NCBI GenBank assembly: GCA_004298155.1
Contig: SCRD01000024.1
Span: 62,001-126,000 of the forward strand
DNA: 64,000 nt
From: Acidobacteriota bacterium
Lineage (GTDB): Bacteria > Acidobacteriota > Terriglobia > UBA7540
Direction of reading: 5' to 3'
Shown piece by piece: positions 38,756 to 60,478 of the stretch (its first letter is position 1; each line of letters opens with the position of its first letter). Under the pieces are notes generated by a model that had not been told where the DNA came from, did not search any database, and was given only the letters and a program-made list of their open reading frames with translations. A program made the position numbers and the translations under genes.

Positions 38756-38757
38756 AT

Positions 38758-39762: not shown

Positions 39763-41377
39763 ATGTGACCTTATTAATTTCCTTCAGTGTTGTAACTCCC
39801 TGGCGAACCTTGTCCAGCGCTGCTTCGCGCAGCGTCTTCATCCCTTCGTCACGGGCCGCCTGGCGGATTTCCGACGAAGGGCGCTTATCCAGAATCAACT
39901 CGCGGATCCTGTCGGAAAGCGCCAGCAGTTCGCCGATTGCGGTCCGGCCGCGAAATCCCGTCTGGCTGCAATGCTGGCAGCCTGCACCCTCATAAAAAAC
40001 AACTCCCGCCCATTTGATGGGATCAATTCCGGACTCTTCGAACAGCTCGCGAGGGGTGGTAACGGCGCGCTTGCACTGCTCGCAAACCATGCGAAGGAGG
40101 CGCTGGGCAAGAATGCAGTTGAGCGCCGAAACAAAGTTGTAGGGCTCCACGCCCATGTTCAGGAAACGGCCCAGCACGTCCACCACGTTATTGGCGTGGA
40201 CTGTGGTAAACACCAGGTGGCCCGTCAGGGCCGACTGGATGGCAATTTGAGCGGTCTCATTGTCGCGGATTTCGCCCACCATGATCTTGTCCGGATCGTG
40301 CCGCAAAATCGACCTTAATCCCCGGACAAATGTGAGCCCCTTCTTCTCGTTGACAGGAATCTGCGTGATGCCGCGGATCTGGTATTCTACGGGATCTTCA
40401 ATCGTTATGATCTTGTCTTCGTCGGTCTTGATTTCCGACAGCGCCGCATAGAGCGTGGTGGTCTTGCCGCTGCCCGTCGGTCCGGTCACCAGGACCATGC
40501 CGTAAGGTTCGCGAATGAAACGCCGCAGGCGCTTAATCTCGCGGTCGGAAAAGCCCAGGATGTCCAGGCGAAGCTGCCGAAACTTCTCATGCAGGGATTC
40601 TTTATCGAGAATACGCAGCACCGCGTCCTCGCCGTGGATGGAAGGCATGATGGACACGCGGAAGTCAATAGGACGCCCGCGGTAGCTGACCCTGAAACGG
40701 CCGTCCTGCGGGACGCGCCTTTCTGCAATGTCAAGGTCCGCCATCACCTTAATGCGGCTGATCACGTTCGATTGATGTTCGTAGGAAAGCGGGTTCATGG
40801 CCTGCTGGAGAGCTCCGTCTATCCGGTACTTGACCACCATCGAGTTATCGCGGCTCTCCAGATGAATATCACTGGCGCGCCGTTCCAGCCCCGCGAAAAC
40901 AATCGAATCCACGAGCCGGATAACCGGGCTGACATCGCGCTCGCCGACCAGTTGCTCAAGCGAAAGATTTTCGTGCCCGTTCTCTTCTTCGCGGATGACG
41001 TCGAGGCGAAACTCGACGGTAGCTTCGTCCAGCACGCGCTGGGAGGGGTCGGTCTTGCTGAGGAATTCCTTCACCTGGCTGGGGGCGGCCACCTTGACCA
41101 CAAGCTGGCGGTCCAGCCGCATCGCCAGTTCGTCCAGGCGGGCCAGATTGGAAGGGTCGCCAACGGCGATGGAAAGCTCTCCATTGTGGGCCTCGAGCGG
41201 CAGGAACTGGTAGTCCAGCATGACGTCCAGAGGAATAGACCGCAGGACGTCGGGGTCTGGACGCAAATCGCGCAGGTCAACAAACTCAAAGCAGTAACGG
41301 GCAGCAGCGCGTCTGGCCGTCGCAAGTTCTTCTTCGGGATCAACCACCATTCCGGAAAGTGGGTTATCTTCCATCAA
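39752..41377 (-). CDS. GspE/PilB-type assembly ATPase
   Basis: Hexameric secretion/pilus extension ATPase, 541 residues, cytoplasmic at the inner membrane. The N-terminal T2SSE domain covers about 20-150. The core has ASDIHLESRD (about 168-177), Walker A GPTGSGKTTTLYAA (299-312), an Asp box IITIEDPVEY, Walker B/His-box MVGEIRDNETA (about 366) and FTTVHANN. A tetracysteine zinc site is visible at C432, C435, C467 and C470. All catalytic motifs are intact. It overlaps gspF by four bases and pilM by eleven. PilB and GspE cannot be separated on sequence; the operon mixes both kinds of partner. Confidence 0.93.
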   Translation of the reverse strand: MMEDNPLSGMVVDPEEELATARRAAARYCFEFVDLRDLRPDPDVLRSIPLDVMLDYQFLPLEAHNGELSIAVGDPSNLARLDELAMRLDRQLVVKVAAPSQVKEFLSKTDPSQRVLDEATVEFRLDVIREEENGHENLSLEQLVGERDVSPVIRLVDSIVFAGLERRASDIHLESRDNSMVVKYRIDGALQQAMNPLSYEHQSNVISRIKVMADLDIAERRVPQDGRFRVSYRGRPIDFRVSIMPSIHGEDAVLRILDKESLHEKFRQLRLDILGFSDREIKRLRRFIREPYGMVLVTGPTGSGKTTTLYAALSEIKTDEDKIITIEDPVEYQIRGITQIPVNEKKGLTFVRGLRSILRHDPDKIMVGEIRDNETAQIAIQSALTGHLVFTTVHANNVVDVLGRFLNMGVEPYNFVSALNCILAQRLLRMVCEQCKRAVTTPRELFEESGIDPIKWAGVVFYEGAGCQHCSQTGFRGRTAIGELLALSDRIRELILDKRPSSEIRQAARDEGMKTLREAALDKVRQGVTTLKEINKVTFVE

Positions 41378-42588
41378 TGCACCTGGGCCGCCAGTGAAAA
41401 CAGCGGCAAATAAAACGCTATCAGTACAAAAAGTACCACAATCGCGATGGCGGCGATCATGATGGGATCCACCATGGCCACCAGTGTCGAAAGGTCGATA
41501 TTGACGTCTTCTTCAAAAAACTCGGCAACCGACTCGAGCATACTCGGGAGTGCGCCCGTAGTTTCCCCCACTTCGATCATATCGAGCGCCATGGGAGGGA
41601 AAAAGCCGGTCATGCGAAGGCTTTCGCTCAGCGGGCGCCCCCCCATCACTTCTATTCTAGCCTTCTCCAGCCCGCCCGCCAGCAGGGGGCTCGATACCGA
41701 CCCCGCCGAGCTTTGGAGCGCTGCCACGATGGGAAGCCCACCTTGCAGCAGCGTTGAAAGCGTGCGTACGAACTCGGCCACGGAAAATTTAAGGAGCAAT
41801 TTTCCTGCCACAGGTAAGCGAAACTTCAGCTTGTCCCATTGCAGGCGCGCCGCGTGAGACCGGCCTGCCGCGCGCAGGGCTAGAATCGCGATCACAATCC
41901 CGGCCAACACAAAGACGCCCATCCGTTTGATGGCAAGACCCAGGCTGATCACAAACATGGTGAGCGGAGGCATGGGAACGTTTAATTCGTTATAGAGCTG
42001 GGAAAACCTGGGAATGATGAACGTATCAATGAGAACAATGAGCCCCGTCAGAAAGATCAGCAGAAAAGCCGGATAAACCAGCGCAGACACAAACTTCTTG
42101 CGGAATGACCGTGCTGTTTTCTGGTAGGTGACGTACTGGCTCAAGACCTTGTCCAGAGTACCGCTGCGCTCACCAGCCCGAAGAGTCGCGCAATAAATCT
42201 TAGGGAACTTACCCATGGACTCGAAGGCCTCAGAGAGCAGGGCCCCGCCGCGAACCCTTTCCTTCACCTCATCCACCGCCGCCCGAAGGCTTTCGCTCCG
42301 GGTCTGGCGGGCCAGCATTTCCAGCGATTTCTGCAGCGGCAGACCTGACTTGGAGAGCGTCATAAACTGCTGGTTAAAAATCAGGAGGTCATCCTCCCTG
42401 ATCTTGCTTCGGCGGGGCGGCCCAACCCGCATGGCGAGAATGGACTTGGGCCTGACGGAAAAAATGTAGTATCCCTGCGAGGCCAGGCGCGCGCGCAGTT
42501 CTCCTTCCGACGACGCTTCGTGCGTCTCGTTGAGGACCTGCCCGGCCCCTGTCGCGATCCTGCAAACGAATTCGCCCATACCTACCAA
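41374..42588 (-). CDS. GspF/PilC-type inner-membrane platform protein
   Basis: 404 residues, the polytopic platform on which the assembly ATPase turns. Two T2SSF repeats: first at about 70-195 (IFNQQFMTLSKSGLPLQKSLE...GERSGTLDKVLSQ), second at about 270-395 (FVRTLSTLLQGGLPIVAALQ...GETTGALPSMLESVAEF). Hydrophobic segments lie near 165-190, 215-240 and 370-395. The N-terminal part has the usual VLNETHEASSEGELRARLASQGY. It overlaps the pseudopilin gene upstream by seven bases and gspE downstream by four. Confidence 0.93.
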   Translation of the reverse strand: MVGMGEFVCRIATGAGQVLNETHEASSEGELRARLASQGYYIFSVRPKSILAMRVGPPRRSKIREDDLLIFNQQFMTLSKSGLPLQKSLEMLARQTRSESLRAAVDEVKERVRGGALLSEAFESMGKFPKIYCATLRAGERSGTLDKVLSQYVTYQKTARSFRKKFVSALVYPAFLLIFLTGLIVLIDTFIIPRFSQLYNELNVPMPPLTMFVISLGLAIKRMGVFVLAGIVIAILALRAAGRSHAARLQWDKLKFRLPVAGKLLLKFSVAEFVRTLSTLLQGGLPIVAALQSSAGSVSSPLLAGGLEKARIEVMGGRPLSESLRMTGFFPPMALDMIEVGETTGALPSMLESVAEFFEEDVNIDLSTLVAMVDPIMIAAIAIVVLFVLIAFYLPLFSLAAQVH

Positions 42589-43037
42589 CTATTGTAGGGT
42601 GTTCCATCCAGCGATTCTGCGGTGGAGCCGCTGTGGACGTCCACCACGCCCGGCACCGTCTGCTCCGGGCTCAAAGGGACTTCTTCAATGTCAGCCTGCC
42701 AGGTCTGGTTGGACCCGGTGAAAGGATCAACAGGCAAACCTCCCCGCAAATAACCGGCCTGCACGAGATCGTCCAGCGATTCCGGAGGCTGGTTCTTGTC
42801 CAATGTGTACTGGTCGATCAGCTTTCGCATCGTGAACAGATCGTCATGCAGGACCGTTTCACGCGCACGGATGATAGCCACGCGATAGCTGGGAGCGGCA
42901 ATTGCTGCAAGGATCAGAATCAGCGTGAGCACCACCATCAGTTCAAGCAGCGTGAAGCCCTTCTTCGCCTCCGTATCTCTCCGGGTAACTCCAGATACCA
43001 AAGTGAAACACCTACCACTCCGCATAAGGGATCCCAT
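42582..43037 (-). CDS. Type II secretion pseudopilin (GspG-like, copy 2)
   Basis: Pseudopilin of up to 151 residues. The prepilin peptidase site is KKG-FTLLELMVV, with the conserved Glu at +5, followed by a 20-residue hydrophobic helix and a GspG-like globular domain (DDLFTMRKLIDQYTLDKNQ, PVDPFTGSNQTWQ). The frame opens at 43037 but the leader would be unusually long. TTG at 43001, ten bases after the stop of the previous gene, gives a 14-residue leader and may be the true start. It would be processed by a PilD peptidase that is not in the window. Confidence 0.88.
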   Translation of the reverse strand: MGSLMRSGRCFTLVSGVTRRDTEAKKGFTLLELMVVLTLILILAAIAAPSYRVAIIRARETVLHDDLFTMRKLIDQYTLDKNQPPESLDDLVQAGYLRGGLPVDPFTGSNQTWQADIEEVPLSPEQTVPGVVDVHSGSTAESLDGTPYNSW

Positions 43038-43497
43038 TCATGCCAATTCCCTGGCTCTTCGAGAAGACATCAAAAACGTCCTGGCCGCCCCAGCTCTGGG
43101 AGTCCGGGTCGTCCTGCATGGAGCGCATCCCCCAATCCGTAGCACCCGTCATCGGGTCAACAGGAATATTTCGGAGAAATTTATACTTGTCCTTGCTGCC
43201 TTTCAACGGGACCCCTTTAACCAGCGTCTCCAGCGTGGGTGGATAGCCGTATGTGTCCATCTGGGTAGGGATCATGCCACTGTCGGCAAAGTCCTTATAC
43301 CGGTCGATGGCACTCCGCATGGTCCTGAGCTCTTCCTTTAATTCACTCTCTTTTTGCCGCCTGACTACCATGCTAGCCACCGGGAGCGCGACCGTGGTGA
43401 GCAACAGCATGATCGTCATTGCAGCAATCAGCTCCACCAGGGTAAAACCAGCACTGGCAGGCTGCAAATTCACCCGTTTTCGAATTGAACGCATCAT
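43012..43497 (-). CDS. Type II secretion pseudopilin (GspG-like, copy 1)
   Basis: 161-residue pseudopilin. Leader of 16 residues ending at ASAG, then FTLVELIAAMTIMLLLTTVALP with Glu at +5. The globular part contains ELREELRTMRSAIDRYKDFADSG-like helices (seen as ELKEELRTMRSAIDRYKD), PPTLETLVKGVPL and RNIPVDPMTGATDWGMRS, the family block that binds calcium in GspG. It begins inside the secretin stop codon (4-base overlap). Paired with the next gene, it suggests one major and one variant pseudopilin. Confidence 0.9.
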   Translation of the reverse strand: MMRSIRKRVNLQPASAGFTLVELIAAMTIMLLLTTVALPVASMVVRRQKESELKEELRTMRSAIDRYKDFADSGMIPTQMDTYGYPPTLETLVKGVPLKGSKDKYKFLRNIPVDPMTGATDWGMRSMQDDPDSQSWGGQDVFDVFSKSQGIGMNGIPYAEW

Positions 43498-45311
43498 CGC
43501 CGTTGCGGTGGCAATCCCTGGGAAGGAGGCTCAGGGCTGGGTGTTACAGGTACGGCAGGGCGCCCAGGTGCTGAAGTGGAAGGGGTTGATGTTGTTGTGC
43601 CAGGCTGCGAAGGGGGTTGCGTCGCAGCAGTCTCCACGGATGATTCCGGCAGGCGGATAATCCGCGGAGTCAGCATGATGAGCACGTCCGTTTGCTGCTT
43701 TTCGTGTTTAGTGTCGCTGAAAAAGTACTTCAGCCCTGGGATCTGGCCAAGTCCGGGAACGCCCGAATGGGTCTCCGTATCCGTCGTCTGGAGCAAGCCG
43801 CCTAGCACACTGGTTTCTCCTTCTTCCAACCGAATGTCATGCTCAATTTGCCGTTGGCCAAACGTCGGCTCGTTCACGCCGGCAATGCTGACCGACGGCT
43901 GCACCGATGAAATATCAATCTTTGCATGGATCGCGATTTCACCGTTGGGCAGCAGGTGCGGCGTCAGGTCCACATTGACTCCGACATCCTGAAACTGGAA
44001 TTGCGTATTGGTGACCAACCCGCCAAATCCCGCGCCCGTTTGATTTGATCCCGGTACGGAGGCGGTAGGCAAACCAAAGCTGCCGGTGGCGTAGGGCACG
44101 CGGCTCCCGATTCGCAGCGTTGCGGTCTCTCCATCCGTCACGCGAACCTCGGGGCTCTGCAAAATGTGCGTTGTCGAATCATTCAGGATGGCGGTGGCAA
44201 TAGCGCTCGGAACCACCAGTCCAAAGTCATTCGTCGAGATGTGCCCGGCGAGGCTCGCCCTGCTTGCCGGGTTGTAAATCGCACCCGACTGGAATCCATT
44301 GACCACGGCGCCCGAAGCAGGGTTAACAGTCGCTGGCGTCAGCCCCAGCTCTCTCACCCGGTCGGCGTCAGCTTCCAGGACCGTAACGTCCACCATAATC
44401 TCGGCCCTGCCATGGTCCAGGTCGTGTATCAAGTTAACAGCTTCCTCTACTTTTTCTGGAGTGTCACGGATGATGATGGCGTTGGCGCCCGGGTTGTCGA
44501 TTATCCGCTGAATACCCAGAATTTGTTTCAGAGCTGTCGTAATTGCCGTCCGGTCGGCAGGCTTCAAGGAGTTATCCAGGAAGACCGTCTTCATAACTTC
44601 GTCCTGATAATCGCGCCGGTTTGCAGGGTTGTCAGGAACAACCAGAATAGTGTTCGATGTAATCACCCTCCAGAACGTGTGGGTCTGCAAAGAAAGGACG
44701 TGCAATGCATTCTCAATGGTCACATTATTCAGGTCCAGCGAAACAGGTTGGGCCTGAAAGTCAGCCGTGAATACGACATTCAGTCCGGCAAGCTTCGAGA
44801 GGGTCTCATAGACCCTTTTACTGTCGGAGCTGATCCGGAAGTGAGTTAACGGTTCAGTCGGCAGGGGCCTCAACTCAGCTGCTGCGGGTTGCTCCTGGCG
44901 TTGGCTGGCCTGGATGGCCTCTTTCAAATCTTTTTCGCGCTCCTGTTTGGCGGTGATTTCCTTGGACAACAGCCGGGCGAGTTCCTGTTTTGCGGCCTGG
45001 TTGCTGGGGTCAATGCTGGCGGCCTTCTGAAACTCTCCAGTCGCTTCCGGCACCCGCTCCTGGCGCAGGAATTCTTTCCCTTTCTCCAGATGGAACTGCG
45101 AAGCTTCCATTCGCGCGTGCGCCTCCCGGAGTTGATAATCGGTGTTCGCAGGCTGTGACTGCGAAGCCTTCTCATAGTTGATCAGCGCCGTGTCCCAGTC
45201 CTTCCTGAGTTCTGCCTTGTGCCCTCTCTGGAAGTACACATTACCAGGAGCACAAGCCATGCAAACAAGCAGACCCGCCAGCGCCGATACACCTGTCAAC
45301 CGCCGCTTCAT
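43494..45311 (-). CDS. Secretin (GspD/PilQ family) with N-terminal TPR-like region
   Basis: Outer-membrane channel of 605 residues and first gene of the operon. An N-terminal signal sequence with a possible lipid-attachment Cys (MACAPG) leads into TPR-like helices (about 25-120: YFQRGHKAELRKDWDTALIN, then VPEATGEFQKAASIDPSNQA). STN/N-domain repeats follow (about 155-300, including NVVFTADFQAQPVSLDLNNV and NAIIIRDTPEKVEEAVNLI), then the secretin beta-barrel (about 300-545) with VPGLGQIPGLKYFFSDTKH and the closing DVLIMLTPRIIRLPE. The tail is Pro/Ser/Thr-rich. The RBS GGGGAG precedes ATG 45311. PilQ-like AMIN domains are absent; the TPR prefix is common in Acidobacteriota-type secretins. Confidence 0.92.
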   Translation of the reverse strand: MKRRLTGVSALAGLLVCMACAPGNVYFQRGHKAELRKDWDTALINYEKASQSQPANTDYQLREAHARMEASQFHLEKGKEFLRQERVPEATGEFQKAASIDPSNQAAKQELARLLSKEITAKQEREKDLKEAIQASQRQEQPAAAELRPLPTEPLTHFRISSDSKRVYETLSKLAGLNVVFTADFQAQPVSLDLNNVTIENALHVLSLQTHTFWRVITSNTILVVPDNPANRRDYQDEVMKTVFLDNSLKPADRTAITTALKQILGIQRIIDNPGANAIIIRDTPEKVEEAVNLIHDLDHGRAEIMVDVTVLEADADRVRELGLTPATVNPASGAVVNGFQSGAIYNPASRASLAGHISTNDFGLVVPSAIATAILNDSTTHILQSPEVRVTDGETATLRIGSRVPYATGSFGLPTASVPGSNQTGAGFGGLVTNTQFQFQDVGVNVDLTPHLLPNGEIAIHAKIDISSVQPSVSIAGVNEPTFGQRQIEHDIRLEEGETSVLGGLLQTTDTETHSGVPGLGQIPGLKYFFSDTKHEKQQTDVLIMLTPRIIRLPESSVETAATQPPSQPGTTTSTPSTSAPGRPAVPVTPSPEPPSQGLPPQRR

Positions 45312-49193: not shown

Positions 49194-49637
49194 ATGGCGG
49201 GTAAAAACAAGAAGCTGAAATTCGGAATTGGGATAGCGATTATCCTCGCAGCCGTGGGATGGGAAGCCCTTTCAGGATTCCAACAATCCAAGACGTACTA
49301 CGTGACGGTCAAGGAGCTTACGAACGGGAAGTCCGCACACGAGCACGTGCGTGTGGGCGGCATTATTGTTCCCGACTCCATTCACCGGAGCGGGCAAACC
49401 CTGACCTTCCGCATCTCCCAGGAAGACCAATCGATCCCCGTCACTTATATTGGTAAAGATACTTTGCCGGATGACTTCAAGGGTGGCGCCAATGCGATTG
49501 TCGAAGGCGACTACCAGGCGGACGGCACTTTCTTCGCGCAGCAGGTGCAGGCGAAGTGCGCCTCCAAATACCAGGCTGCGCCTATCGCCCCGAAGGAGGC
49601 GAACGCCGCGTCGAAAGTCGCTTCCAATGGTGAATGA
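49194..49637 (+). CDS. ccmE: Cytochrome c maturation heme chaperone CcmE, CxxxY type
   Basis: Periplasmic heme chaperone that takes heme from CcmABCD and passes it to CcmF/H. 147 residues: a membrane anchor (about 9-28) and an OB-fold domain with VRVGGIIVPDSIHRSGQTL, then VTYIGKDTLPDDFKGGANAI and VEGDY. The heme-attaching motif, HxxxY in most bacteria, here reads AKCASKY with Cys122 and Tyr126. The CxxxY form is known from archaea and a few sulfate reducers and is thought to bind heme through Cys. ATG 49194 has GGAGAGGAAGG upstream; the longer frame to 49101 is not protein-like. First gene of the ccm cluster. Confidence 0.92.
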   Translation: MAGKNKKLKFGIGIAIILAAVGWEALSGFQQSKTYYVTVKELTNGKSAHEHVRVGGIIVPDSIHRSGQTLTFRISQEDQSIPVTYIGKDTLPDDFKGGANAIVEGDYQADGTFFAQQVQAKCASKYQAAPIAPKEANAASKVASNGE

Positions 49638-49728: not shown

Positions 49729-51753
49729 ATGAATCAAATTGGAGCTGTTGGACTTATCGCCGCGCTCGTATTCGCGATCTACGGGATGATCTCCGGCGCT
49801 ATCGCGGGAAAGCTTCGGAGCCCCCGGATGCTGAAAAGCGCGCAACGCTCCGTCCTGGGCTTCTTCGCCATGGTCACGCTGGCGGTTGTGTCCCTTGAGT
49901 ACCTGATCCTTACCAATGATTTCCATAGCGCCTACGTCGCATCTCACTCCAGCCGGGCGCTTCCCCTTCTTTACAAAATCCCTGTCTTGTGGTCAGGACA
50001 AGAGGGCTCACTGCTGTTCTGGACCTGGTTGCTTTCCATTTACGTCGGCTTGGCTGTCCTGCTGAACCGGCGCAAGAACCGGCAGTTGATGCCCTACATC
50101 ATCGCCATCTGCATGGGTGTGGGAACGTTCTTCTCATTGCTCATGTTCTGGGTGGCAAACCCTTTCAACCAACTCTCATTAGCCACGGCAACGGGCGCGG
50201 TGCCCTATGCGCCACCTGATGGAAATGGGATGAACCCGACCCTGCAATATCATTCGATGGTAATCCACCCACCGATGCTTTATCTCGGTTATGTAGGGAT
50301 GGCGATTCCCTTCGCATTTGCCATGTCGGCCCTGATGACTCGCCAGTTGGGCGACAACTGGATTCGCGTGACCCGCCGGTGGATGATGGTGCCCTGGATG
50401 TTTCTGGGCACGGGCATCGTGCTGGGCGGGCATTGGGCCTACCACGTTCTCGGATGGGGCGGTTACTGGGCCTGGGACCCGGTGGAAAACGCCTCGCTGC
50501 TGCCATGGCTTGCGGGTACGGCGTTTCTTCATTCGGTCATGATCCAGGAAAAGCGCGGCATGCTGAAAGTCTGGAACATGGCCCTGATTATCCTGACTTT
50601 CTTCCTGTCCATTTTTGGAACCTTTCTGACCCGCAGCGGGATCATCTCGTCCGTCCACGCATTCGCACAATCCAACATTGGCCCTTGGTTTTCAGTCTTT
50701 CTTGCTATTATCGCGGCATTTTCGCTTACGGTGCTTTTCCTGCGTTTGGATTTTCTGAAAACAGAGAACCGACTGGACTCCATAGCCTCTCGCGAGAGCG
50801 GGTTCCTGTTTAACAACTGGATCCTGCTTGCTGCAGTGCTCGCCGTGCTGTGGGGAACCATCTTCCCGGTCGTCTCCAAGGCCATTCAGGGCGTCACGGT
50901 AACGGTGGGGCCCCCATTCTTCAACAGGGTGATGGTCCCCATCGGATTGCTGTTGCTGTTCCTTACGGGCGCAGGTCCGCTGCTGGCCTGGAGAAAAACA
51001 TCGTTCCAGAGTATCAGGCGTAATTTCACTCTTCCGCTGGTTTTTGCAGCGATCGTGGGCGGAATACTGTTTTTCGTGGGCGTCCATCAGCTCTACACGT
51101 GGATGTCTCTATTCTTGTGCGCCTTTGTCGCCGCAAGCATCATTGGAGAATTCTACAAGGGCGCACGCACGCGGGTGAAGACGCGCAAGGAAAACTTCTT
51201 TGCCGCCGTCTATAACCTGACCATGAGGAACACGCGCCGGTACGGCGGGTACATCGTCCATTTCGGCATCGTTCTGATCTTTGTGGGATTTGCTGGGCAG
51301 GCCTTCAGATTTGAAACGCAAGGGCTGATGGGTCCAGGAGACCTTCTGCGGGCCAAAGATTATCTGTTTCGGTGCGAAAGTATCGATACCGGGCAGAAGG
51401 CAAACTACGAATACGAAACTGTCGCTCTGGATGTAACCAAAGACGGGCGCGCGTTGACCGTCATGCATCCGCAAAGGCGATTCTTTATCGCGGAGCAGCA
51501 GCCCCTCAGCCACGTTGCATTGCATTCGACTCTGGCGCAGGACCTATACGTTGTCATGGCCGGCCAGGACCCGGATACGGGCAAAGCCATCATTCACGTT
51601 ATCATCAACCCTCTGGTGCAGTGGGTGTGGATTGGCGGAATAATCGTTCTTTTAGGGACGCTGTTGGCGCTGGTTCCAAGCAGTATTGAACGGCAGATGG
51701 CTGATTTCCACAAAAATCGGGAGGAAGTGGCCGAAGCGCACCATGCCCGCTAG
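49729..51753 (+). CDS. ccmF: Heme lyase subunit CcmF
   Basis: Integral membrane heme lyase of 674 residues, with about 13-15 hydrophobic segments. The tryptophan-rich heme-handling motif WGGYWAWDPVENASLLPW is near residues 243-260. Conserved histidines are seen in YHSMVIHPPMLYLGYVG and LHSVMIQEKRG. FGTFLTRSGIISSVHAFAQS is the other diagnostic block. A C-terminal soluble region (about 545-630) precedes a last helix. It follows ccmE by about 90 bases and overlaps ccmH by 11. RBS AAGGGGGAA. Confidence 0.95.
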   Translation: MNQIGAVGLIAALVFAIYGMISGAIAGKLRSPRMLKSAQRSVLGFFAMVTLAVVSLEYLILTNDFHSAYVASHSSRALPLLYKIPVLWSGQEGSLLFWTWLLSIYVGLAVLLNRRKNRQLMPYIIAICMGVGTFFSLLMFWVANPFNQLSLATATGAVPYAPPDGNGMNPTLQYHSMVIHPPMLYLGYVGMAIPFAFAMSALMTRQLGDNWIRVTRRWMMVPWMFLGTGIVLGGHWAYHVLGWGGYWAWDPVENASLLPWLAGTAFLHSVMIQEKRGMLKVWNMALIILTFFLSIFGTFLTRSGIISSVHAFAQSNIGPWFSVFLAIIAAFSLTVLFLRLDFLKTENRLDSIASRESGFLFNNWILLAAVLAVLWGTIFPVVSKAIQGVTVTVGPPFFNRVMVPIGLLLLFLTGAGPLLAWRKTSFQSIRRNFTLPLVFAAIVGGILFFVGVHQLYTWMSLFLCAFVAASIIGEFYKGARTRVKTRKENFFAAVYNLTMRNTRRYGGYIVHFGIVLIFVGFAGQAFRFETQGLMGPGDLLRAKDYLFRCESIDTGQKANYEYETVALDVTKDGRALTVMHPQRRFFIAEQQPLSHVALHSTLAQDLYVVMAGQDPDTGKAIIHVIINPLVQWVWIGGIIVLLGTLLALVPSSIERQMADFHKNREEVAEAHHAR

Positions 51754-52219
51754 CAGGCTTGTAAAAATTCTCATCATGGTCTTCGTCATGGTCAATGTGG
51801 CCATGGCCGCTCAGTCTCCTGCTCAGGTTGAGAAGGACATCGGGGATAAGGTTTACTGCCTGTGCGGGTGCGTCACCAGCCTGAACACCTGCGCTCACCT
51901 CAACTGTGAGGTGAAAGCAGAGATGCATAAGATTATCCGTGCTGACCTGAGCGAGGGCAAGGGAGAACCTGCTATCCTTCAGGACCTTGTGGACCATTAT
52001 GGAGAAAAGGTACTGGCCGCTCCTCCCGCGCGAGGCTTTAACCTGACAGCATGGATCCTTCCTGGAGTTGGGCTGTTGATTGGTTTGCTCCTGGCCATCA
52101 CGATTGTCAGAAGGTGGCGCAGGCCGGCAGTTCAAGCTGCGGCCCCGGAAGGCGCGCCGCCGGTAGCTGAAAACGTACTCAGCGCGGTTGAAGAGGAAAT
52201 GAAGAAGTACGTTGATTAA
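51743..52219 (+). CDS. ccmH: CcmH-like apocytochrome thiol reductase with cysteine-rich motif
   Basis: 158 residues: a signal/anchor (about 5-22), a periplasmic CcmH fold and a C-terminal transmembrane helix (about 103-123). Classical CcmH has one LRCxxCQ redox pair. Here the segment reads YCLCGCVTSLNTCAHLNC, giving Cys39, Cys41, Cys43, Cys50 and Cys55 with His52. This could carry a metal, or use an altered pair to reduce apocytochromes before heme attachment. DLSEGKGEPAILQDLVDHYGEKVLAAPP matches the conserved CcmH helix region in pattern. The ATG is inside the end of ccmF. Confidence 0.87.
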   Translation: MPASRLVKILIMVFVMVNVAMAAQSPAQVEKDIGDKVYCLCGCVTSLNTCAHLNCEVKAEMHKIIRADLSEGKGEPAILQDLVDHYGEKVLAAPPARGFNLTAWILPGVGLLIGLLLAITIVRRWRRPAVQAAAPEGAPPVAENVLSAVEEEMKKYVD

Positions 52220-52260: not shown

Positions 52261-52713
52261 ATGGAATTGGGAATTGCAATTCTGCTGGTTATCGGACTGG
52301 CTGTGTTCACGGTCACCCCTTTGCTTGCTCCAGATGGACCCTCCGAAGACGCCCTGCCGATTGACGTCACGCCACTTGCGGACCTGAAACGCCGGCGGAT
52401 GGTAGTCTATGAAAACATCCAGGACCTGGAGTTTGAATATAAGGCTGGAAAGATCTCAAAAGAAGATTACCAGTCGCTGCGCGAGAATCATCTGGCTGAA
52501 GCTGCGCAGTTGATGCTGGCTTCTCAGGAGCAGGAAGAGGTTACGGAGCACGATTTGATGATTGAGAGGCAGGTTGCGGAGCGGCGCGCACAGAAGAAGT
52601 CACAGCGGCCGGATCCCTACGTATGCCCTGAATGTAGCTTCGAAAACCCGCTGCCGGTGAAATACTGCGGAAACTGTGGCAAAGAACTCCACCAGCGGAC
52701 TCACAGGAAGTGA
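52261..52713 (+). CDS. CcmI-like membrane protein with C-terminal zinc ribbon
   Basis: 150 residues. One N-terminal transmembrane helix (about 3-22, IAILLVIGLAVFTVTPLLAP) is followed by a charged helix with VYENIQDLEFEYKAGKISKEDYQ, the segment typical of the cytoplasmic loop of CcmI/CycH in cytochrome maturation. The C-terminus is a four-cysteine zinc ribbon (CPECSFENPLPVKYCGNCGK). There are no TPR repeats, so it is a reduced CcmI-type protein. ATG 52261 has AAAGGTAAAGAA in front. The stop overlaps the next gene's GTG start. Confidence 0.75.
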   Translation: MELGIAILLVIGLAVFTVTPLLAPDGPSEDALPIDVTPLADLKRRRMVVYENIQDLEFEYKAGKISKEDYQSLRENHLAEAAQLMLASQEQEEVTEHDLMIERQVAERRAQKKSQRPDPYVCPECSFENPLPVKYCGNCGKELHQRTHRK

Positions 52714-54020
52714 GCCGGCCAGAATTCCAGCGTTTGTTTGCGGCGCCTTGCAGAGTTGAATCCTTGTACCGAGTGAAAAGAACACCGGCATTCACAGTCC
52801 TCGCGGTTCTGGCGGGACTCTGCTTCCTCTTTAGCGCTTCCACCAACTCTCTCGCGGCCCGGATTCAGGGGCAGGTCTTTAATGGCACAACCCAGGGGCC
52901 GGTAGCCAGCCAGAAAGTGCTGGTAATCAGCCCGCGGGGCGGCATGGCCGTGGTAAGTGAAGGCACTACGGGCATAAACGGCCATTTTGATATCAACAAT
53001 CAGATTGGCACCAAAGGATTTTACCTGATTCAGACAACCTATGATGGCGTGGACTACAATGCACCGATACAGTTCGATCCCACCGGCAATGCCGCCGTCA
53101 ACCTCACTGTTTACCAATCTACCGGCAAAAAACCCGATCTTCGCATCAATTCCGCTCGTGTGATCGTGCGCGCGGAAGCCTCTCAGGCGCATATTCAGGA
53201 ACTCTACGCAATCCAGAACCCGACGCAGAAAGCGTACGCGAATCCCAGCGGGACATTCTTCTTCCACATAGCATCCGGGGTGGATAACCCCACCGTTGCC
53301 GCCGTCGGGCTGATGAACATGCCTCTGCCCCAGAACCCTGAAAAAGGAAAGATGCCCGGCGACTTTTACATTACATACGCCCTGAAGCCCGGGACGAACG
53401 TGCTTATGGTCTCATACGACTCGGATTACAGTGGACAGCAGCTTGACCTGAACGATAGCGTCGCCTACCCGATCGCGCAAATGCAGCTTTTCGTCGTTCC
53501 TCCAACCCTGACCGTAAAATCGAGCCTGTTTACGGCTGCTGGCCGGGATTCGGACACCGGCGCACAAATCTATGAGGCCAGCGAATTGAAAGCCGGTGCC
53601 GGGTTCGCCGCACAGCTTGCTGGAGAACCTGGCACAAGTGGTGAGGAGGCAAACGCTGGACAGCAACAGGAAGAGACGCAGGTTAAGACGGTTCCAGATT
53701 CGATTACTTCCGTAGGCATTCCATTTCTGCTCTGCTTTCTGCTGGTCCTATTGTGGGCTCTGGGAATTCGCACGGCCAAGGAGTGGCCCCGTTGGAAAGC
53801 CAGGCAGCAGGGCAGCCCTGTACAGAAGCAATTTCGGGCCAAGCTGGATACTTTGATAAACTCGATTGCAGATATCGACGAGTTGTTTGCCTCCGGTAAA
53901 ATCTCGGAAACACAATATTGGAAGGAGCGCCTGGAATTGAAAGCAAGGGCAGTGGCTGTCTTAAAAGCAGGCCCTTCCACGAAATCCAAGCCTTATGCCT
54001 CCCGGGGATCAAGCCACTAA
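52710..54020 (+). CDS. Uncharacterised envelope protein encoded inside the ccm cluster
   Basis: 436 residues, no firm family. A signal peptide is followed by a carboxypeptidase-regulatory-like beta domain (about 50-135: RIQGQVFNGTTQGPVASQKVL, GINGHFDINNQ), a second beta-rich domain (about 140-270), a Gln/Glu linker, one transmembrane helix (about 333-353, SVGIPFLLCFLLVLLWALGI) and a cytoplasmic helical tail with DTLINSIADIDELFASGKIS, a short SHOCT/CcmI-like helix pair similar to that in the preceding gene. The GTG at 52710 overlaps the previous stop (GTGA). A GTG at 52773 would give a neater signal peptide (KRTPAFTVLAVLAGLCFLF). It overlaps ccmA by 26 bases, so it belongs to the operon. Confidence 0.75.
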   Translation: MSRPEFQRLFAAPCRVESLYRVKRTPAFTVLAVLAGLCFLFSASTNSLAARIQGQVFNGTTQGPVASQKVLVISPRGGMAVVSEGTTGINGHFDINNQIGTKGFYLIQTTYDGVDYNAPIQFDPTGNAAVNLTVYQSTGKKPDLRINSARVIVRAEASQAHIQELYAIQNPTQKAYANPSGTFFFHIASGVDNPTVAAVGLMNMPLPQNPEKGKMPGDFYITYALKPGTNVLMVSYDSDYSGQQLDLNDSVAYPIAQMQLFVVPPTLTVKSSLFTAAGRDSDTGAQIYEASELKAGAGFAAQLAGEPGTSGEEANAGQQQEETQVKTVPDSITSVGIPFLLCFLLVLLWALGIRTAKEWPRWKARQQGSPVQKQFRAKLDTLINSIADIDELFASGKISETQYWKERLELKARAVAVLKAGPSTKSKPYASRGSSH

Positions 54021-54729
54021 ACCGTTGCTGGAAGTCCGCAAGGTTACCAAGTTCTTTGGCGACCTTGCCGCACTCAAGGAAGTCACGCTGGACATCCGTT
54101 GTGGCGAGTCGACGCTATTGTACGGCCCGAACGGGGCCGGCAAGACGACTCTGCTGCGAATGCTGGCTTCGCTTGTGCGTCCCAGTTCCGGCCAGGTCCT
54201 TTTTGACGGCAAGAACATCGAGCATGACGGAGCAGGTGCAAAAGGCGCCATCGGGTTTGTATCACACGCGACCTTTCTTTATGGAGAGCTGACGGTGCGT
54301 GAAAACCTGAAGTTCTTTGGAAGCCTCTTCAGGCTCAGCAATCTTGAAAAGCGCATCGATACTGCTCTCGAGATGTTTGACATGCGCCCGCGGGAGGACG
54401 TTTTTGCCCGAGACCTTTCACGAGGGCTGCAACAGCGTGCGTCACTGGCACGGGCCTTTCTGCACGATCCGGACTTTGTTATCCTCGATGAGCCGTTCAC
54501 AGGCCTGGACCATCAGTCAGTAAAGAAACTGGAGGACCTGCTGCTTCGTCTGCCGGAGCAGGGGAAGGCGCTAATGTTTTCAACGCATGACTTCGAGCAG
54601 GGAGCTGCGCTGGCCACGCGCCTGATTGCGCTCAAAGCAGGCCGCGTTCGATATAATGGTCCTCTGGATATCGCGCCCTTCAAGCGCTTGGGGATTGTGC
54701 GGGCCTTCGGGCAGAGTCGCGATGAATAA
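53995..54729 (+). CDS. ccmA: Heme exporter ATP-binding protein CcmA
   Basis: ABC ATPase of the CcmABCD complex that releases heme-loaded CcmE. 244 residues. Walker A GPNGAGKTTLLRMLA (about 44-58), Q-loop region GFVSHATFLYGELTVREN, signature LSRGLQQRASLARAFL, Walker B FVILDEPFTGLD and switch His in STHDFEQG. The C-terminal extension (LIALKAGRVRYNGP) is short. It overlaps the gene before by 26 bases and ccmB by 8. CcmA is assigned from neighbours as much as from sequence, since ABC ATPases are alike. Confidence 0.92.
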   Translation: MPPGDQATKPLLEVRKVTKFFGDLAALKEVTLDIRCGESTLLYGPNGAGKTTLLRMLASLVRPSSGQVLFDGKNIEHDGAGAKGAIGFVSHATFLYGELTVRENLKFFGSLFRLSNLEKRIDTALEMFDMRPREDVFARDLSRGLQQRASLARAFLHDPDFVILDEPFTGLDHQSVKKLEDLLLRLPEQGKALMFSTHDFEQGAALATRLIALKAGRVRYNGPLDIAPFKRLGIVRAFGQSRDE

Positions 54730-55399
54730 TCTGAAGATCATTTGGAGCATTCTGGTCAAAGATCTTCGTGTCGAATGGAGAAACCGCGAGACGCTTGCTT
54801 CCATGTGTGTCTTCGGACTTCTCATCGTTTTCCTTTTCAATTTTGCTTTCGAAAACGCACGCGAAGAGACGCTGCGGCTGCTTCCCGCTGTGTTGTGGGT
54901 GGCCATTGCATTTGCAGGCGTGCTGGGCTTTAACCGATCATTCGCGTCTGAGCGGGAAAATTCCTGCCTGGAAGGCATGACGTTGGCGCCCGTAGACCCC
55001 AGCATGATCTTTGTCGGCAAGATGTTGGCCAATTTGCTGTTCCTGGGAATTGCAGAAGTGGTCATGGCGTTTGCTGCTGCGCTCTGGTTCAACTTTTCTT
55101 TTTTACCGGCCCTCAGCCAGTTGCTGCTGGTCGCGTTCTTCGGAACGCTGGGCTATGCAGCGCTGGGGACCATCTTTGGGGCCATTGCAGCCAACACTCG
55201 CATGCGTGAAGTGATGCTGACTATCCTGCAGTTTCCCATCGCTTTCTGGATTTTGATGCTTTCCATCGATTCCACGAGCAACGCCATGCGCGGAAACTCC
55301 GGCAGCGACTGGGTTGGCGGCATAGCCAGAGTAGCAGGGATCAGCGTCGTTTTTACAGTTGCCTCATTCCTGCTTTTCGAATACGTTCTGGAAGAGTAA
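54722..55399 (+). CDS. ccmB: Heme exporter membrane subunit CcmB
   Basis: 225 residues with six hydrophobic segments; permease partner of CcmA. Family patterns: IIWSILVKDLRVEWRNRETL at the start, LPAVLWVAIAFAGVLGFNRSF, the cytoplasmic ENSCLEGMTLAPVDPSMIF, and a C-terminal LLFEYVLEE. The open frame extends upstream to 54626 in the wrong context; ATG 54722, inside the end of ccmA, fits the CcmB N-terminus. ccmC starts 81 bases later. Confidence 0.92.
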   Translation: MNNLKIIWSILVKDLRVEWRNRETLASMCVFGLLIVFLFNFAFENAREETLRLLPAVLWVAIAFAGVLGFNRSFASERENSCLEGMTLAPVDPSMIFVGKMLANLLFLGIAEVVMAFAAALWFNFSFLPALSQLLLVAFFGTLGYAALGTIFGAIAANTRMREVMLTILQFPIAFWILMLSIDSTSNAMRGNSGSDWVGGIARVAGISVVFTVASFLLFEYVLEE

Positions 55400-55480: not shown

Positions 55481-56179
55481 ATGACCAAGAAGTTTCCAAT
55501 GTGGCTGCATTCGGTGCTGACGCTCGCCGGCCTGATAGTGACGATCTATATGATCTTCCTCTACGCTCCTGAAGAAATGACTATGGGCGAAGTGCAGCGG
55601 ATCTTCTATGTTCATGTGCCCGCAGCCTGGGTTTCGTTAATGGGATTTCTGATTATTTTCTCAGCAAGCATCGTTTATCTGTGGAAGCGGACCCAGTTTT
55701 CCGATGAACTAGCGCAGGCCACTGCCGAAGTAGGATTCATTTTCTGCACCTGCGTGCTGGTGACGGGCCCTTTGTGGGCAAAGCCGGCCTGGGGTATTTG
55801 GTGGACCTGGGATGCGCGTCTGACGCTGACGTTCCTTCTGTGGCTGCTTTATGTAGCCTATTTAATGCTGAGAAATTATCTGGTCAACCCGGGACGCGCG
55901 GCCAGTCTTTGCGCCGTGGTCGGAATCATCGGCTTTGTAGACGTCCTAATTGATTACATGGCCATTCGGTGGTGGAGAACGCAGCATCCGCAGCCTGTCG
56001 TTCTGGGCGGGCCCGAATCCGGACTCGATCCGCGCATGCTGGCCACGCTGCTGGTCAGTTGGGGAGTTTTTACGCTTCTGTTCTTTCTGCTGCTCCGCAT
56101 GCGATTGCGGCTTGCGGGAATGCGGAGACAGTTGAGCGAGATCCGTCACGTTTTGGCGTTCAAGATTTCGGAGGATTAG
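55481..56179 (+). CDS. ccmC: Heme transfer protein CcmC
   Basis: Membrane protein of 232 residues with six helices that loads heme on CcmE. Diagnostic motifs: IFYVHVPAAWVSL with the first heme-ligand His, and the periplasmic tryptophan signature AKPAWGIWWTWDARLT (about 105-120). The second His is expected in the next loop (RTQHPQPVV). GACAGGGG provides the ribosome site. The C-terminus (RMRLRLAGMRRQLSEI) is basic. ccmD starts one base after the stop. Confidence 0.94.
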   Translation: MTKKFPMWLHSVLTLAGLIVTIYMIFLYAPEEMTMGEVQRIFYVHVPAAWVSLMGFLIIFSASIVYLWKRTQFSDELAQATAEVGFIFCTCVLVTGPLWAKPAWGIWWTWDARLTLTFLLWLLYVAYLMLRNYLVNPGRAASLCAVVGIIGFVDVLIDYMAIRWWRTQHPQPVVLGGPESGLDPRMLATLLVSWGVFTLLFFLLLRMRLRLAGMRRQLSEIRHVLAFKISED

Positions 56180-56180
56180 A

Positions 56181-56351
56181 GTGGTTAACAAATATCTTTT
56201 TGTTGCTTATTCGTTTGTCTGGGTGATTTTTATGCTGTACGCGTGGAACTTGAGCCGACGGCAGGACAATTTGAAAAGGGAGTTGGAGGAAGTAAAGAAC
56301 AAGGTTGCCGAATCCGCTCCTGCTGCTGCTTCAGGCAGATCCAGTCCTTGA
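56181..56351 (+). CDS. ccmD: CcmD-like small membrane protein
   Basis: 56 residues from GTG 56181, preceded by GGAGG. One transmembrane helix (YLFVAYSFVWVIFMLYAW, about 5-22) then a charged helix (LSRRQDNLKRELEEVKNKV), which is the CcmD architecture; the family includes short proteins with a Y-x-x-x-A-Y-x-x-x-x motif at the membrane. It forms the regulatory part of the CcmABC complex in better-studied systems. A terminator hairpin follows about 40 bases later, so it closes the ccm operon. Short open frames of this size are easy to miss. Confidence 0.85.
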   Translation: MVNKYLFVAYSFVWVIFMLYAWNLSRRQDNLKRELEEVKNKVAESAPAAASGRSSP

Positions 56352-57567: not shown

Positions 57568-57671
57568 CAGACTTCGGGCTCTGTGCAACGGATGTTCGTG
57601 AACCCCGCCAGGTCCGGAAGGAAGCAACGGTAGCGAGCCGCTCTGTGTGCCGCAGACCAACCCGAAGTCTG
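57568..57671 (+). ncRNA. ffs: Bacterial small signal recognition particle RNA
   Basis: The SRP core is visible: CCAGGTCCGGAAGGAAGCA, with the GGAA tetraloop and the asymmetric loop that bind Ffh (57608-57626). The ends form a perfect 11-bp stem, CAGACTTCGGG (57568-57578) with CCCGAAGTCTG (57661-57671), which fixes the size at about 104 nt, typical of the short 4.5S type without an Alu domain. It sits just before dnaX, a common place for ffs. Confidence 0.93.
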
Positions 57672-57761: not shown

Positions 57762-59522
57762 ATGTCTTACCAGGTTATAGCCCGCAAATACCGGCCTCAG
57801 TTTTTTGACGACGTTGCCGGACAGCGTCTGATTACTGATACGCTGAAGAACGCCGTCATCAAGCAGCGAGTCGCGCACGGATACATCTTTTCCGGCGCGC
57901 GGGGAGTTGGCAAAACCACCACGGCTCGAATCCTGGCCAAGTCTCTGAACTGCATCAAGGGGCCGACAGTCACTCCATGCGGCGAGTGCCCATCCTGCCA
58001 GGAGATCGCTCAGGGAAATTCAGTGGACGTTTTTGAAATTGACGCTGCGTCCAATCGTGGCATCGATGAGATCCGCGAACTGCGAGAAACCGTCCGTTAT
58101 CTTCCAGCCCGCGACCTTTACAAAGTCTTCATCATTGACGAAGCCCATATGTTGACCACAGAGGCCTTCAACGCGCTGCTGAAGACCCTGGAAGAGCCAC
58201 CGCCAAGGTCCCTGTTTGTCCTCTGCACAACCGAAGCCCACAAGCTGCCAACCACCATTCAGTCCCGTTGCCAGCACTTCTCTTTCCGCCTGCTGGATTA
58301 TTCGGAAATTCTCAGCCGCATCGAGTGGGTGATGAAACAGGAGCGGCTTGATGCCGATGAGGGCGCCTTAAGCGCAGTCGCTGAAGCCGCTGAAGGCAGC
58401 CTTCGCGACGCACTCTCGCTGCTCGATCAGGCCATTGCCTCCAGCGCCGAGCGCCTTGAAGATGCGCATGTTCGGCAGTTGCTGGGAGTGGTCTCCAGCC
58501 AGGTCCTTACCGACCTGGTGGAATCTATTGCTGCGGGGGACACGGGAAAAGTTCTCCAGATTGTCGAGCGTGTTGCAGCGGAAGGCTATGAACTGAACCA
58601 TTTCTGCGGCGAACTCACGCGTTACATCCGCAACCTGGCGGTTGCCAAAAGTTGCGGGACGGAAAGCCCTCTGCTTCAACTTCCCTCCACCGACCGTGCC
58701 GTGCTGGGCAAGCTTCGCGAACAGTTCAGCGAAGAGGACCTCGCGCGCTTTTTTCAGATCCTGGTGCGCACTGAAAACGACATGCGCTATGCGCTGAACC
58801 CTCGCTTTCAAATGGAACTTGGACTGATCAAAATGGTGCATGCCGGCAAGCTGAGGTCCCTTGAAAGTCTTCTGGCTGAGCTGGAGGGATCCTCTCAAGC
58901 ATCAATCAAGAAGGCAGCACCGGATTCCTCCGGCAACCTGCCTACTTCGGCATCTGTAAACGCAGGGAAATCCCCATACAATCCGCGTTTGGCGTCTCAG
59001 GCGCCGGTTTCCATCCGGCAGACGGAGGCTCCACGCAATCCTGAAAAGTCTCTAAAGCATCCTGCAACCGCGCCGATGAAACCCGTAAGCTCCATGCCGA
59101 CGCAAATGCCTCCGGGTATTTCCCCGGTGCAACCTGCTCCTTCGGAAGCTCCCGGCGATCCACGCCTGACCAGGATCAAGAGCCTGGCTTTCGGACAATC
59201 CAAGCTGCTGAGCAGTTGCCTTGATCCTGTCTCGGGATGGCGTTTTGAAAACGGCGAGGTCTGCTTTATCTTTTCCAAGAGCGATTCCTGGGCGGCTGAC
59301 CTCTTAAGCTCGCGCGAACAGCAGGAAAAACTTCAGACCCTGTGTGCGGAGGTGCTGGGGCAGCCCGTGAGGATTTGTGTTACACTCGATAACGAAGAAA
59401 AATCGAGGCTCAAAGACCGTCGCAGCGTTCGCGAACGCGCCGAGAGCGACGGAGGGGTCGAAGCACTGGTAAAGAAGTTCCGATGCACCCTGGTCGATGT
59501 GATTGATTTGAGCCTGGAGTGA
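57762..59522 (+). CDS. dnaX: DNA polymerase III subunit gamma/tau
   Basis: Clamp-loader ATPase of 586 residues. It begins YQVIARKYRPQFFDDVAGQ. Walker A GARGVGKTTTAR (about 45-56), a four-Cys zinc module (LNCIKGPTVTPCGECPSC), Walker B/DExx VFIIDEAHMLT and sensor-1 TTEAHKLPTTIQSRCQHF follow. Domain III runs to about 365. Residues about 380-470 are a Pro/Ser linker and the C-terminal about 110 residues a tau-like domain. There is no obvious A-rich slippery run for a programmed frameshift. First of the cluster dnaX-ybaB-recR, an arrangement widely conserved. Confidence 0.96.
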   Translation: MSYQVIARKYRPQFFDDVAGQRLITDTLKNAVIKQRVAHGYIFSGARGVGKTTTARILAKSLNCIKGPTVTPCGECPSCQEIAQGNSVDVFEIDAASNRGIDEIRELRETVRYLPARDLYKVFIIDEAHMLTTEAFNALLKTLEEPPPRSLFVLCTTEAHKLPTTIQSRCQHFSFRLLDYSEILSRIEWVMKQERLDADEGALSAVAEAAEGSLRDALSLLDQAIASSAERLEDAHVRQLLGVVSSQVLTDLVESIAAGDTGKVLQIVERVAAEGYELNHFCGELTRYIRNLAVAKSCGTESPLLQLPSTDRAVLGKLREQFSEEDLARFFQILVRTENDMRYALNPRFQMELGLIKMVHAGKLRSLESLLAELEGSSQASIKKAAPDSSGNLPTSASVNAGKSPYNPRLASQAPVSIRQTEAPRNPEKSLKHPATAPMKPVSSMPTQMPPGISPVQPAPSEAPGDPRLTRIKSLAFGQSKLLSSCLDPVSGWRFENGEVCFIFSKSDSWAADLLSSREQQEKLQTLCAEVLGQPVRICVTLDNEEKSRLKDRRSVRERAESDGGVEALVKKFRCTLVDVIDLSLE

Positions 59523-59878: not shown

Positions 59879-60478
59879 ATGGACGAATACGCAGCGCCTC
59901 TTGCGCGCCTGATTGATGAATTGAAACGCCTCCCAGGCATTGGGCAGAAGTCCGCTCAACGCATCGCATTCCATCTTGAGCGCGCCCCGCGCGAAGACGT
60001 TCAGCGGCTGGCCGAAGCGCTTCTCGATGCCAAGGATAAGATCCGCCTCTGCAGCGTCTGCAATAATCTTACAGAATCAGACCCGTGCGAATATTGTTCT
60101 GACCCCAGGCGCGATCCGGAACTGCTTTGCGTTGTGGAGACTCCCTATAACGTTGTCTCAGTGGAAAAGGCGCACGAGTTCCGCGGGCGGTATCACGTGC
60201 TGCACGGCGCCCTTTCGCCGCTACAGGGAATCGGCCCTGAACAACTCAAGCTGAAGAACCTGATCGATCGCCTCAAAGACGGCACAGTGCGTGAAATGAT
60301 AGTGGCAACCAGCCCGACGGTCGAAGGCGAAGCCACCGCCGTTTACCTGGCCAGGCTGGTCAAACCGCTGGGAGTCAAAGTCAGCCGCATCGCCATGGGC
60401 ATTCCGGTGGGCTCGGATCTGGAGTTCGCGGACGAAGTCACAATGCTCCGCGCATTAGAAGGCCGCCGCGAGATGTAA
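59879..60478 (+). CDS. recR: Recombination mediator RecR
   Basis: 199 residues, full length. A helix-hairpin-helix start ([26 protein letters not shown]), a four-Cys zinc finger ([16 protein letters not shown], about 58-73), a Toprim domain (about 80-175, with [21 protein letters not shown] and [18 protein letters not shown]) and a C-terminal Walker-B-like helix region ([19 protein letters not shown]). Acts with RecO/RecF to load RecA on single-stranded gaps. Last gene of dnaX-ybaB-recR; a GC-rich hairpin without T-run lies at 60513-60532 between it and the converging korB. Confidence 0.96.

What the first reader, a model, noticed from the sequence alone, without database searches (positions are those of the whole stretch)
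49194..49637. CcmE with CxxxY instead of HxxxY
AKCASKY carries Cys122 where heme usually attaches to His. The CxxxY form has been described in archaea and sulfate reducers. Finding it in a likely acidobacterium with a complete ccmABCDEF-H set widens its range.
Basis: partly seen in the sequence, partly recalled or inferred. Interest (0 to 1): 0.58.

Follow-up and report, generated by a model that had tools for sequence, protein, structure and literature searches.

The report
Cysteine-type CcmE in matched heme-attachment operon
This soil-type bacterium carries heme to its c-type cytochromes on a cysteine instead of the textbook histidine; that turns out to be the usual form in its phylum, but it always comes with a matching set of altered partner proteins, which suggests testable reasons why the two forms cannot be swapped.

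Summary
The ORF at 49194-49637 is a CcmE with Cys122 in AKCASKY where E. coli has His130, in a ccmE-F-H-(CcmI-like)-(unknown)-A-B-C-D operon, and it is the genome's only CcmE.

Cysteine-type CcmE ("System I*") is long known in archaea and Desulfovibrio. A 2011 review already lists chloroflexi and firmicutes and says about one third of the bacterial cases keep CcmH. In my sample of Acidobacteriota, 140 of 158 CcmE loci are cysteine-type; all 59 CcmE read from three other phyla are too. So this is the ordinary form for its phylum.

What may be new is how the rest of the operon tracks the switch. Cysteine-type loci never carry the classical LRCxxC CcmH (0 of 183; His-type 16 of 18). Where a CcmH was found (78 loci) it is a Cys-rich CxCG form, fused to CcmF in 26. 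In CcmC the residue after the axial heme ligand P-His2 is Pro in 128 of 128 cysteine-type and Gln in 12 of 12 His-type sequences. Apart from the CcmE residue itself, it is the only such column of 1,450 compared. Both trees fit a single ancient switch, so this is a linked set, not repeated covariation.

The parts
49194..49637 (+). ccmE, cysteine-type heme chaperone, 147 aa; Cys122/Tyr126 in AKCASKY
   Evidence: PF03100 84.2 bits; translation; residue positions
49557..49559 (+). TGC codon of Cys122, the heme-attachment position
49729..51753 (+). ccmF, heme lyase, 674 aa, WGGYWAWDPVEN at residue 243
   Evidence: PF16327 215 bits, PF01578 129 bits
51743..52219 (+). ccmH of the Cys-rich type (CcmH*), 158 aa; Cys 39, 41, 43, 50, 55
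   Evidence: PF03918 59 bits; alignment A1 of 70; model with PDB 2hl7/2kw0 as best fold matches
52261..52713 (+). CcmI-N-like protein: TM helix, helical hairpin, C-terminal CxxC..CxxC zinc-ribbon-like end (ZR); start codon chosen here
   Evidence: weak DZR/zinc-ribbon Pfam matches under cut-off; its counterpart in Metabacillus matches TIGR03142 CcmI weakly; in 93 of 123 Cys-type and 0 of 15 His-type loci with F and A
52710..54020 (+). conserved protein of unknown function (U): beta-rich periplasmic part, TM helix, C-terminal helical hairpin (read from the sequence by eye); start uncertain
   Evidence: no Pfam match over cut-off; in 89 of 123 Cys-type and 0 of 15 His-type loci with F and A
53995..54729 (+). 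ccmA, ATPase
   Evidence: TIGR01189 135 bits, over cut-off 131.6
54722..55399 (+). ccmB, membrane subunit
   Evidence: PF03379 106 bits
55481..56179 (+). ccmC, heme presenter; His45 (P-His1) and His169 (P-His2)
   Evidence: TIGR01191 149 bits, below its cut-off of 186; PF01578 116 bits, over cut-off
55985..55990 (+). CATCCG = His169-Pro170 of CcmC: axial ligand P-His2 and the Pro that marks the Cys-type system (E. coli H184-Q185)
56181..56351 (+). ccmD, 56 aa, GTG start
   Evidence: TIGR04391 CcmD_alt_fam 37.3 bits, cut-off 24

Best explanation
This is the heme chaperone of a complete cysteine-type Ccm system (System I*), the standard form in Acidobacteriota. Proposed cycle: CcmC/CcmD hold exported heme on the periplasmic side between His45 and His169; CcmE docks and its Cys122 takes the heme at a vinyl group (probably a thioether), Tyr126 acting as iron ligand; CcmAB release the loaded CcmE; CcmF receives the heme and joins it to CXXCH apocytochromes; the Cys-rich CcmH* keeps the apocytochrome thiols reduced and may help to eject the CcmE cysteine from the heme; the CcmI-like protein and U hold or guide apocytochrome. 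Shown here: the genes, the motif, its conservation, and that CcmH type and the residue after CcmC P-His2 track the CcmE type. Inferred: the chemistry, from Desulfovibrio and Methanosarcina work, and the roles of CcmH*, ZR and U.
For: All System I core parts are recognised and adjacent, and CcmE is single-copy. Cys at this position is conserved in 183 of 201 loci and the following residues change with it: Cys-type C-[PA]-[ST]-[KR]-Y, His-type H-[DNG]-[NE]-x-Y. M. acetivorans C120A abolishes heme staining of CcmE (PMC9084895, passages). The D. desulfuricans operon makes holocytochrome c in E. coli with Cys-bound heme (PMC3601427, passages). CcmH* has the CcmH fold. It is naturally fused to CcmF in 26 loci, so it works next to the lyase. 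Classical CcmH is absent from all 183 Cys-type loci.
Against: No experiment on this protein. D. vulgaris CcmE with the same motif was reported to bind ferric heme non-covalently through its Cys (PMC3884852, passages), so covalent attachment is not certain for every member. No CXXCH protein was convincingly seen in this 64-kb window (two short frames only), and I did not list cytochromes in the rest of the genome. No CcmG was found in the operon, and I did not search the genome for one or for CcdA/DsbD.
Confidence: 0.88

Rival explanations
1. A degenerate or mis-sequenced His-type CcmE: Cys122 is a chance change and heme is bound elsewhere or not at all.
For: Only one residue differs from the textbook motif at the attachment point; the assembly is a draft (29 contigs).
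Against: Cys is shared by 183 of 201 loci, with C-[PA]-[ST]-[KR]-Y around it; the whole operon is of the Cys type (Pro after CcmC P-His2, CcmH*, gene order).
Confidence: 0.01
2. Cys122 binds heme but only non-covalently, as a thiolate ligand, as reported for D. vulgaris CcmE.
For: PMC3884852 reports non-covalent ferric heme binding through C127 in D. vulgaris (passages).
Against: D. desulfuricans (reported in PMC3601427) is described as covalent, and M. acetivorans CcmE heme staining depends on the Cys (PMC9084895); isolated soluble domains lack CcmC, which makes the bond.
Confidence: 0.15
3. The CcmC Pro/Gln and CcmH differences are only marks of old common descent of two operon lineages and have nothing to do with the CcmE residue.
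For: Both the CcmC and CcmF trees need a single change of type, so the association counts once; many neutral differences could be fixed along that branch.
Against: Of 1450 columns in CcmE, C, F, B and A only two are cleanly switched: the CcmE residue and the one beside the heme ligand that faces CcmE during loading. Ten named plasmid loci outside the discovery set agree (two Cys-type Bacillota, seven annotated His-type bacteria and the unannotated L337); two haloarchaea fit neither class.
Confidence: 0.45

Closest known systems
System I* (Ccm with CxxxY CcmE), D. desulfuricans
   Same: Cys instead of His in CcmE; CcmA, B, C, D, E, F core (PMC3601427, PMC9084895, passages)
   Different: D. desulfuricans lacks CcmH and CcmG; here a CcmH with a Cys-rich motif is present, plus a CcmI-like zinc-ribbon protein and an unknown protein; ccmE-F lead the operon
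Archaeal Ccm, M. acetivorans (CcmABCEF)
   Same: CxxxY CcmE, Cys needed for heme attachment and stability (PMC9084895, passages)
   Different: archaeal set lacks CcmD and CcmH and is not in one operon; here both are present in one operon
Geoglobus/Ferroglobus CcmH-like proteins
   Same: Cys-rich LX[SN]C[EDH]C motif instead of LRCxxC, in an organism with CxxxY CcmE (PMC4600277, passages); the closest published hint of the pattern found here
   Different: two copies flanking a duplicate CcmF in archaea; no link to CcmE type drawn in the passages I read
E. coli System I
   Same: same protein families and folds (2hl7/2kw0 CcmH, 6zmq CcmF, 1sr3 CcmE)
   Different: His130, LRCxxC CcmH, Gln185 after CcmC His184; His-type loci have ccmA before ccmE (15 of 15 with F and A)

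Membership tests
CcmE heme chaperone (PF03100) | profile match over the curated cut-off | tested here: met
   84.2 bits against 24.6
CcmE heme chaperone (PF03100) | N-terminal membrane anchor and OB-fold domain | tested here: inconclusive
   sequence match to solved CcmE chains 1sr3, 8ce8, 1j6q, 2kct; the hydrophobic N-terminus is read from the sequence only; not modelled
[quoted passage not shown]
   AKCASKY, Cys122/Tyr126
System I* | CcmA, B, C, D, E, F core | tested here: met
System I* | absence of CcmH (original 2006 description, seen only as title and through other papers; the 2011 review says it is not characteristic) | tested here: not met
   PF03918 match 59 bits at 51743-52219; the motif is not LRCxxC
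System I* | heme attached covalently to the Cys | not testable with these tools
   needs heme staining
Classical System I | HxxxY CcmE | tested here: not met
   Cys122
Classical System I | LRCxxC CcmH | tested here: not met
   window CcmH has CLCGC..C....C
CcmH (PF03918) | profile and fold | tested here: met
   59 bits, cut-off 25; model mean pLDDT 90.2, best fold matches 2hl7 and 2kw0 at probability 1.00 and 0.99 (E 0.06-0.07); A1 profile hits the same two by sequence at 7e-9 and 4e-8

The most novel reading that the evidence does not exclude
Systems I and I* are two locked, non-mixing machines, told apart by three linked marks: His or Cys in CcmE, Gln or Pro right after the CcmC heme ligand P-His2, and CxxC or non-CxxC (mostly Cys-rich CxCG) CcmH. 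The CcmC residue and the CcmH* cysteines would be the compensating features that the 2011 review said bioinformatics had not found: CcmC Pro would set the heme so that a thiol rather than an imidazole attacks the vinyl, and CcmH* would help break the thioether when heme moves to apocytochrome.
Probability: 0.35. Interest if true: 0.72.

Novelty: new member of a known kind. Interest (0 to 1): 0.47.

Why it matters
The CcmE result is a phylum-level extension of a known variant. Its value is that Acidobacteriota hold both forms side by side and, unlike Desulfovibrio, many keep a CcmH, so partner proteins can be compared. The comparison yields a one-residue candidate (CcmC position 185 in E. coli numbering) and a Cys-rich CcmH for the open question why His and Cys in CcmE cannot be exchanged. 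Both can be tested in laboratory E. coli.

Tried and rejected
Sequencing error or decay: rejected by conservation. A second, His-type CcmE in the same genome: none. A third PF01578 protein in the genome sits beside hemA and looks HemX/CcsA-like by eye; not pursued. 'Absence of CcmH defines System I*': rejected, yet it is truly missing in many: of 70 Cys-type genomes chosen because no CcmH had been called near their ccmE, 32 have a PF03918 match somewhere (including all 19 of family f2) and 38 have none; weak CcmH* could be missed by that model. Idea that CcmH* is universal with Cys CcmE: rejected. Bacillota (Metabacillus, Cytobacillus) and Bdellovibrionota (L238) have another form with two Cys 7-8 residues apart, and for L238 my classical profile scored slightly higher (54.3 against 49.9), although it has no CxxC. 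Idea that His CcmE always means CcmC Gln: rejected. Two haloarchaea (L326, L327) have His at or near the CcmE position, without the usual Tyr four residues on, and HA or HE in CcmC. Cys clustering in the CcmH* model could not be measured: coordinates are not readable in the Python box. The CcmF-CcmH* fusion model matched CcmF 6zmq, but the linker has pLDDT under 50 (677-696), so the placement of CcmH* is not used. Goddard 2010 and Aramini 2012 are not held; they are known here only through other papers.

Full report
Observation. The frame at 49194-49637 (+) encodes a 147-residue CcmE (PF03100, 84.2 bits). Its single Cys is residue 122, codon TGC at 49557, in AKCASKY; Tyr126 follows four residues on. 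In alignment it takes the place of E. coli His130. The genome (97.6% complete) has one CcmE.

Surroundings. The operon runs ccmE, ccmF, ccmH, a CcmI-N-like protein with a zinc-ribbon end (ZR), an unknown protein (U), ccmA, ccmB, ccmC, ccmD. CcmD is the alternative family TIGR04391, 37.3 bits over a cut-off of 24. Some NCBIfam matches are below that library's cut-offs (for instance ccmC 149 of 186, ccmB 57 of 156), as expected of a divergent lineage; the Pfam matches of CcmE, F, H, B and C are over theirs. The same order E-F-H-x-x-A-B-C is seen on plasmids of Metabacillus and Cytobacillus. The order A-B-C before E holds in 15 of 15 His-type loci with F and A; Cys-type loci have A after E in 99 of 123.

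How common. 242 of 396 sampled genomes of the phylum match CcmE. I took 160 regions, about one per genus, from these; 158 hold a CcmE and two were weak false leads (L220, L221). By the profile column 140 are Cys and 18 His. His occurs in 7 of 63 family codes (f23, f27, f32, f42, f49, f84, f87); f84 and f32 hold both types. All 42 named loci found with the window protein are Cys, but that search is biased to close relatives, 7 of the 42 are from other phyla, and at least one locus is a duplicate (L064 and L104 give the same neighbouring protein sequences). With the window this makes 201 loci, 183 Cys and 18 His. Outside the phylum every CcmE read from whole-genome searches is Cys: 6 of 6 Bdellovibrionota, 30 of 30 Spirochaetota (of 32 matches), 23 of 23 Planctomycetota (chosen because they have CcmH); E. 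coli read the same way gives His. So the Cys form is ordinary here.

Prior knowledge. The FEBS J 2011 review (PMC3601427; passages) describes System I*, lists delta-proteobacteria, chloroflexi and firmicutes, gives CPSKY as the main motif (25 of 36), and says about one third of such bacteria have CcmH. The eLife 2022 paper (PMC9084895; passages) shows that C120 of M. acetivorans CcmE is needed for heme attachment and stability and that C120H fails. A Geoglobus genome paper (PMC4600277; passages) noted CcmH-like proteins with a Cys-rich motif lacking LRCxxC. Searches pairing CcmE or CcmH with Acidobacteri (listings only), CcmI with zinc ribbon (no paper) and CcmF, CcmH, fusion and fused (listing, and passages of two of the papers) showed no earlier account of the pattern below in this library. 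That library lacks most subscription papers.

CcmH tracks CcmE. Over the 201 loci, scored with profiles made from them, Cys-type loci have CcmH* (CxCG..C with further Cys) in 78 of 183, classical LRCxxC CcmH in 0 of 183, and no CcmH called in the rest, many of which are cut by contig ends; His-type loci have the classical form in 16 of 18, CcmH* in 0 of 18, none in 2. A plain pattern search made before any profile gave the same split, 67 and 16 with no crossing. In 26 loci CcmH* is fused to the C-terminus of CcmF. In alignment A1 (70 of the CcmH* domains, window first) Cys39, 41 and 43 are invariant and Cys50 and 55 are at 90% or more. The model (mean pLDDT 90.2) has its best fold matches in solved CcmH domains (probability 1.00 and 0.99, but Foldseek E only 0.06-0.07). 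In Planctomycetota the CcmH* profile outscored the classical one in 22 of 22 genomes that also have CcmE. In Spirochaetota two CcmH sequences were readable and both are CxC-type. In Bdellovibrionota and Bacillota CcmH lacks CxxC in another way.

CcmC tracks CcmE. I compared every well-filled column of CcmE (129), CcmC (226), CcmF (655), CcmB (219) and CcmA (221) between types, E. coli included in the His set except for CcmF. Only two of 1450 columns are at least 95% fixed on both sides with no overlap: the CcmE residue itself and one CcmC column, Gln in 12 of 12 His-type and Pro in 128 of 128 Cys-type sequences (2 more have a gap). It is the residue right after His184 of E. coli CcmC, the P-His2 axial heme ligand (PMC9616876; passages); a published model puts His130 of CcmE about 4 A from a vinyl of the heme held there (PMC8975832; passages). 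A check on named plasmid loci outside the discovery set: two Bacillota (Cys CcmE, HP CcmC) and seven bacteria with His CcmE and HQ CcmC, among them the actinomycete Pseudonocardia, all fit; of two unannotated records scanned by pattern, L337 fits (KHDEKY, HQ) and L336 gave HQ but no clear CcmE; the Shewanella record has HQ and no CcmE annotated in reach. Two haloarchaea do not fit either class (His near the CcmE site; HA and HE in CcmC).

How much this proves. On the CcmC tree (90 of 142 sequences) and the CcmF tree (79 of 168) the types need one change (support 94 and 91; both short searches, and the CcmF tree warns of long branches). The His-type operons of Acidobacteriota group with E. coli on the CcmC tree (E. 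coli CcmF was not in that set), which points to whole-operon transfer into a Cys-type phylum. The association therefore rests on one old split plus the lack of any mixed operon, not on repeated coincident change. That is why I give the functional lock only moderate odds.

Mechanism. Shown: gene content, motif, conservation, linked marks. From the literature: Cys-dependent heme attachment in System I* members, although D. vulgaris was reported non-covalent (PMC3884852; passages). Inferred: in the window's system CcmC hands heme to Cys122, CcmF moves it to apocytochrome, CcmH* supplies thiol chemistry, and ZR and U assist.

Verdict. Observation confirmed; interpretation partly supported; CcmE itself is a new member of a known kind and ordinary for its phylum; the linked CcmC and CcmH differences deserve an experiment.

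Noticed in passing
L108, L124-L132, L147-L148, L163-L164, L170-L174, L187-L188, L216-L217, L234 and others: Natural CcmF-CcmH* fusions of about 825 aa in 26 loci; a ready single-chain holocytochrome c synthase for structure work.
   Followed up: partly
52261-52713 and 52710-54020: Two uncharacterised proteins (CcmI-N-like with zinc ribbon; beta-rich with TM and hairpin) found in 93 and 89 of 123 Cys-type loci with F and A and in none of 15 His-type loci.
   Followed up: partly
L326 and L327 (Natronorubrum, Halorussus plasmids): Haloarchaeal CcmE have VRAHEG where others have KC[PA]SKY or KHDENY, against the statement that archaeal CcmE universally carry CxxxY; CcmC has HA or HE after the aligned His.
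   Followed up: no
L238 and L324/L325: A further CcmH form with two Cys 7-8 residues apart and no CxxC, with Cys-type CcmE, in Bdellovibrionota and Bacillota.
   Followed up: no
L078-L090 and other f2 loci: Family f2 (same class as the window): ccmE-A-B-C without ccmF nearby; PF03918 is present elsewhere in all 19 f2 genomes searched.
   Followed up: partly
G069: L150 and L151: One draft genome with a Cys-type and a His-type CcmE on short contigs; could be contamination.
   Followed up: no
57572-57670: Bacterial small SRP RNA gene between the ccm operon and dnaX (57762-59522) and recR (59879-60478).
   Followed up: no
36171-45311 (-): Type IV pilus / type II secretion-like cluster: T2SSE and T2SSF matches and a secretin-like lipoprotein read by eye at 43494-45311.
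   Followed up: no
60586-63484 (-): 2-oxoacid:ferredoxin oxidoreductase alpha and beta genes (POR, POR_N, TPP_enzyme_C, PFO_beta_C).
   Followed up: no
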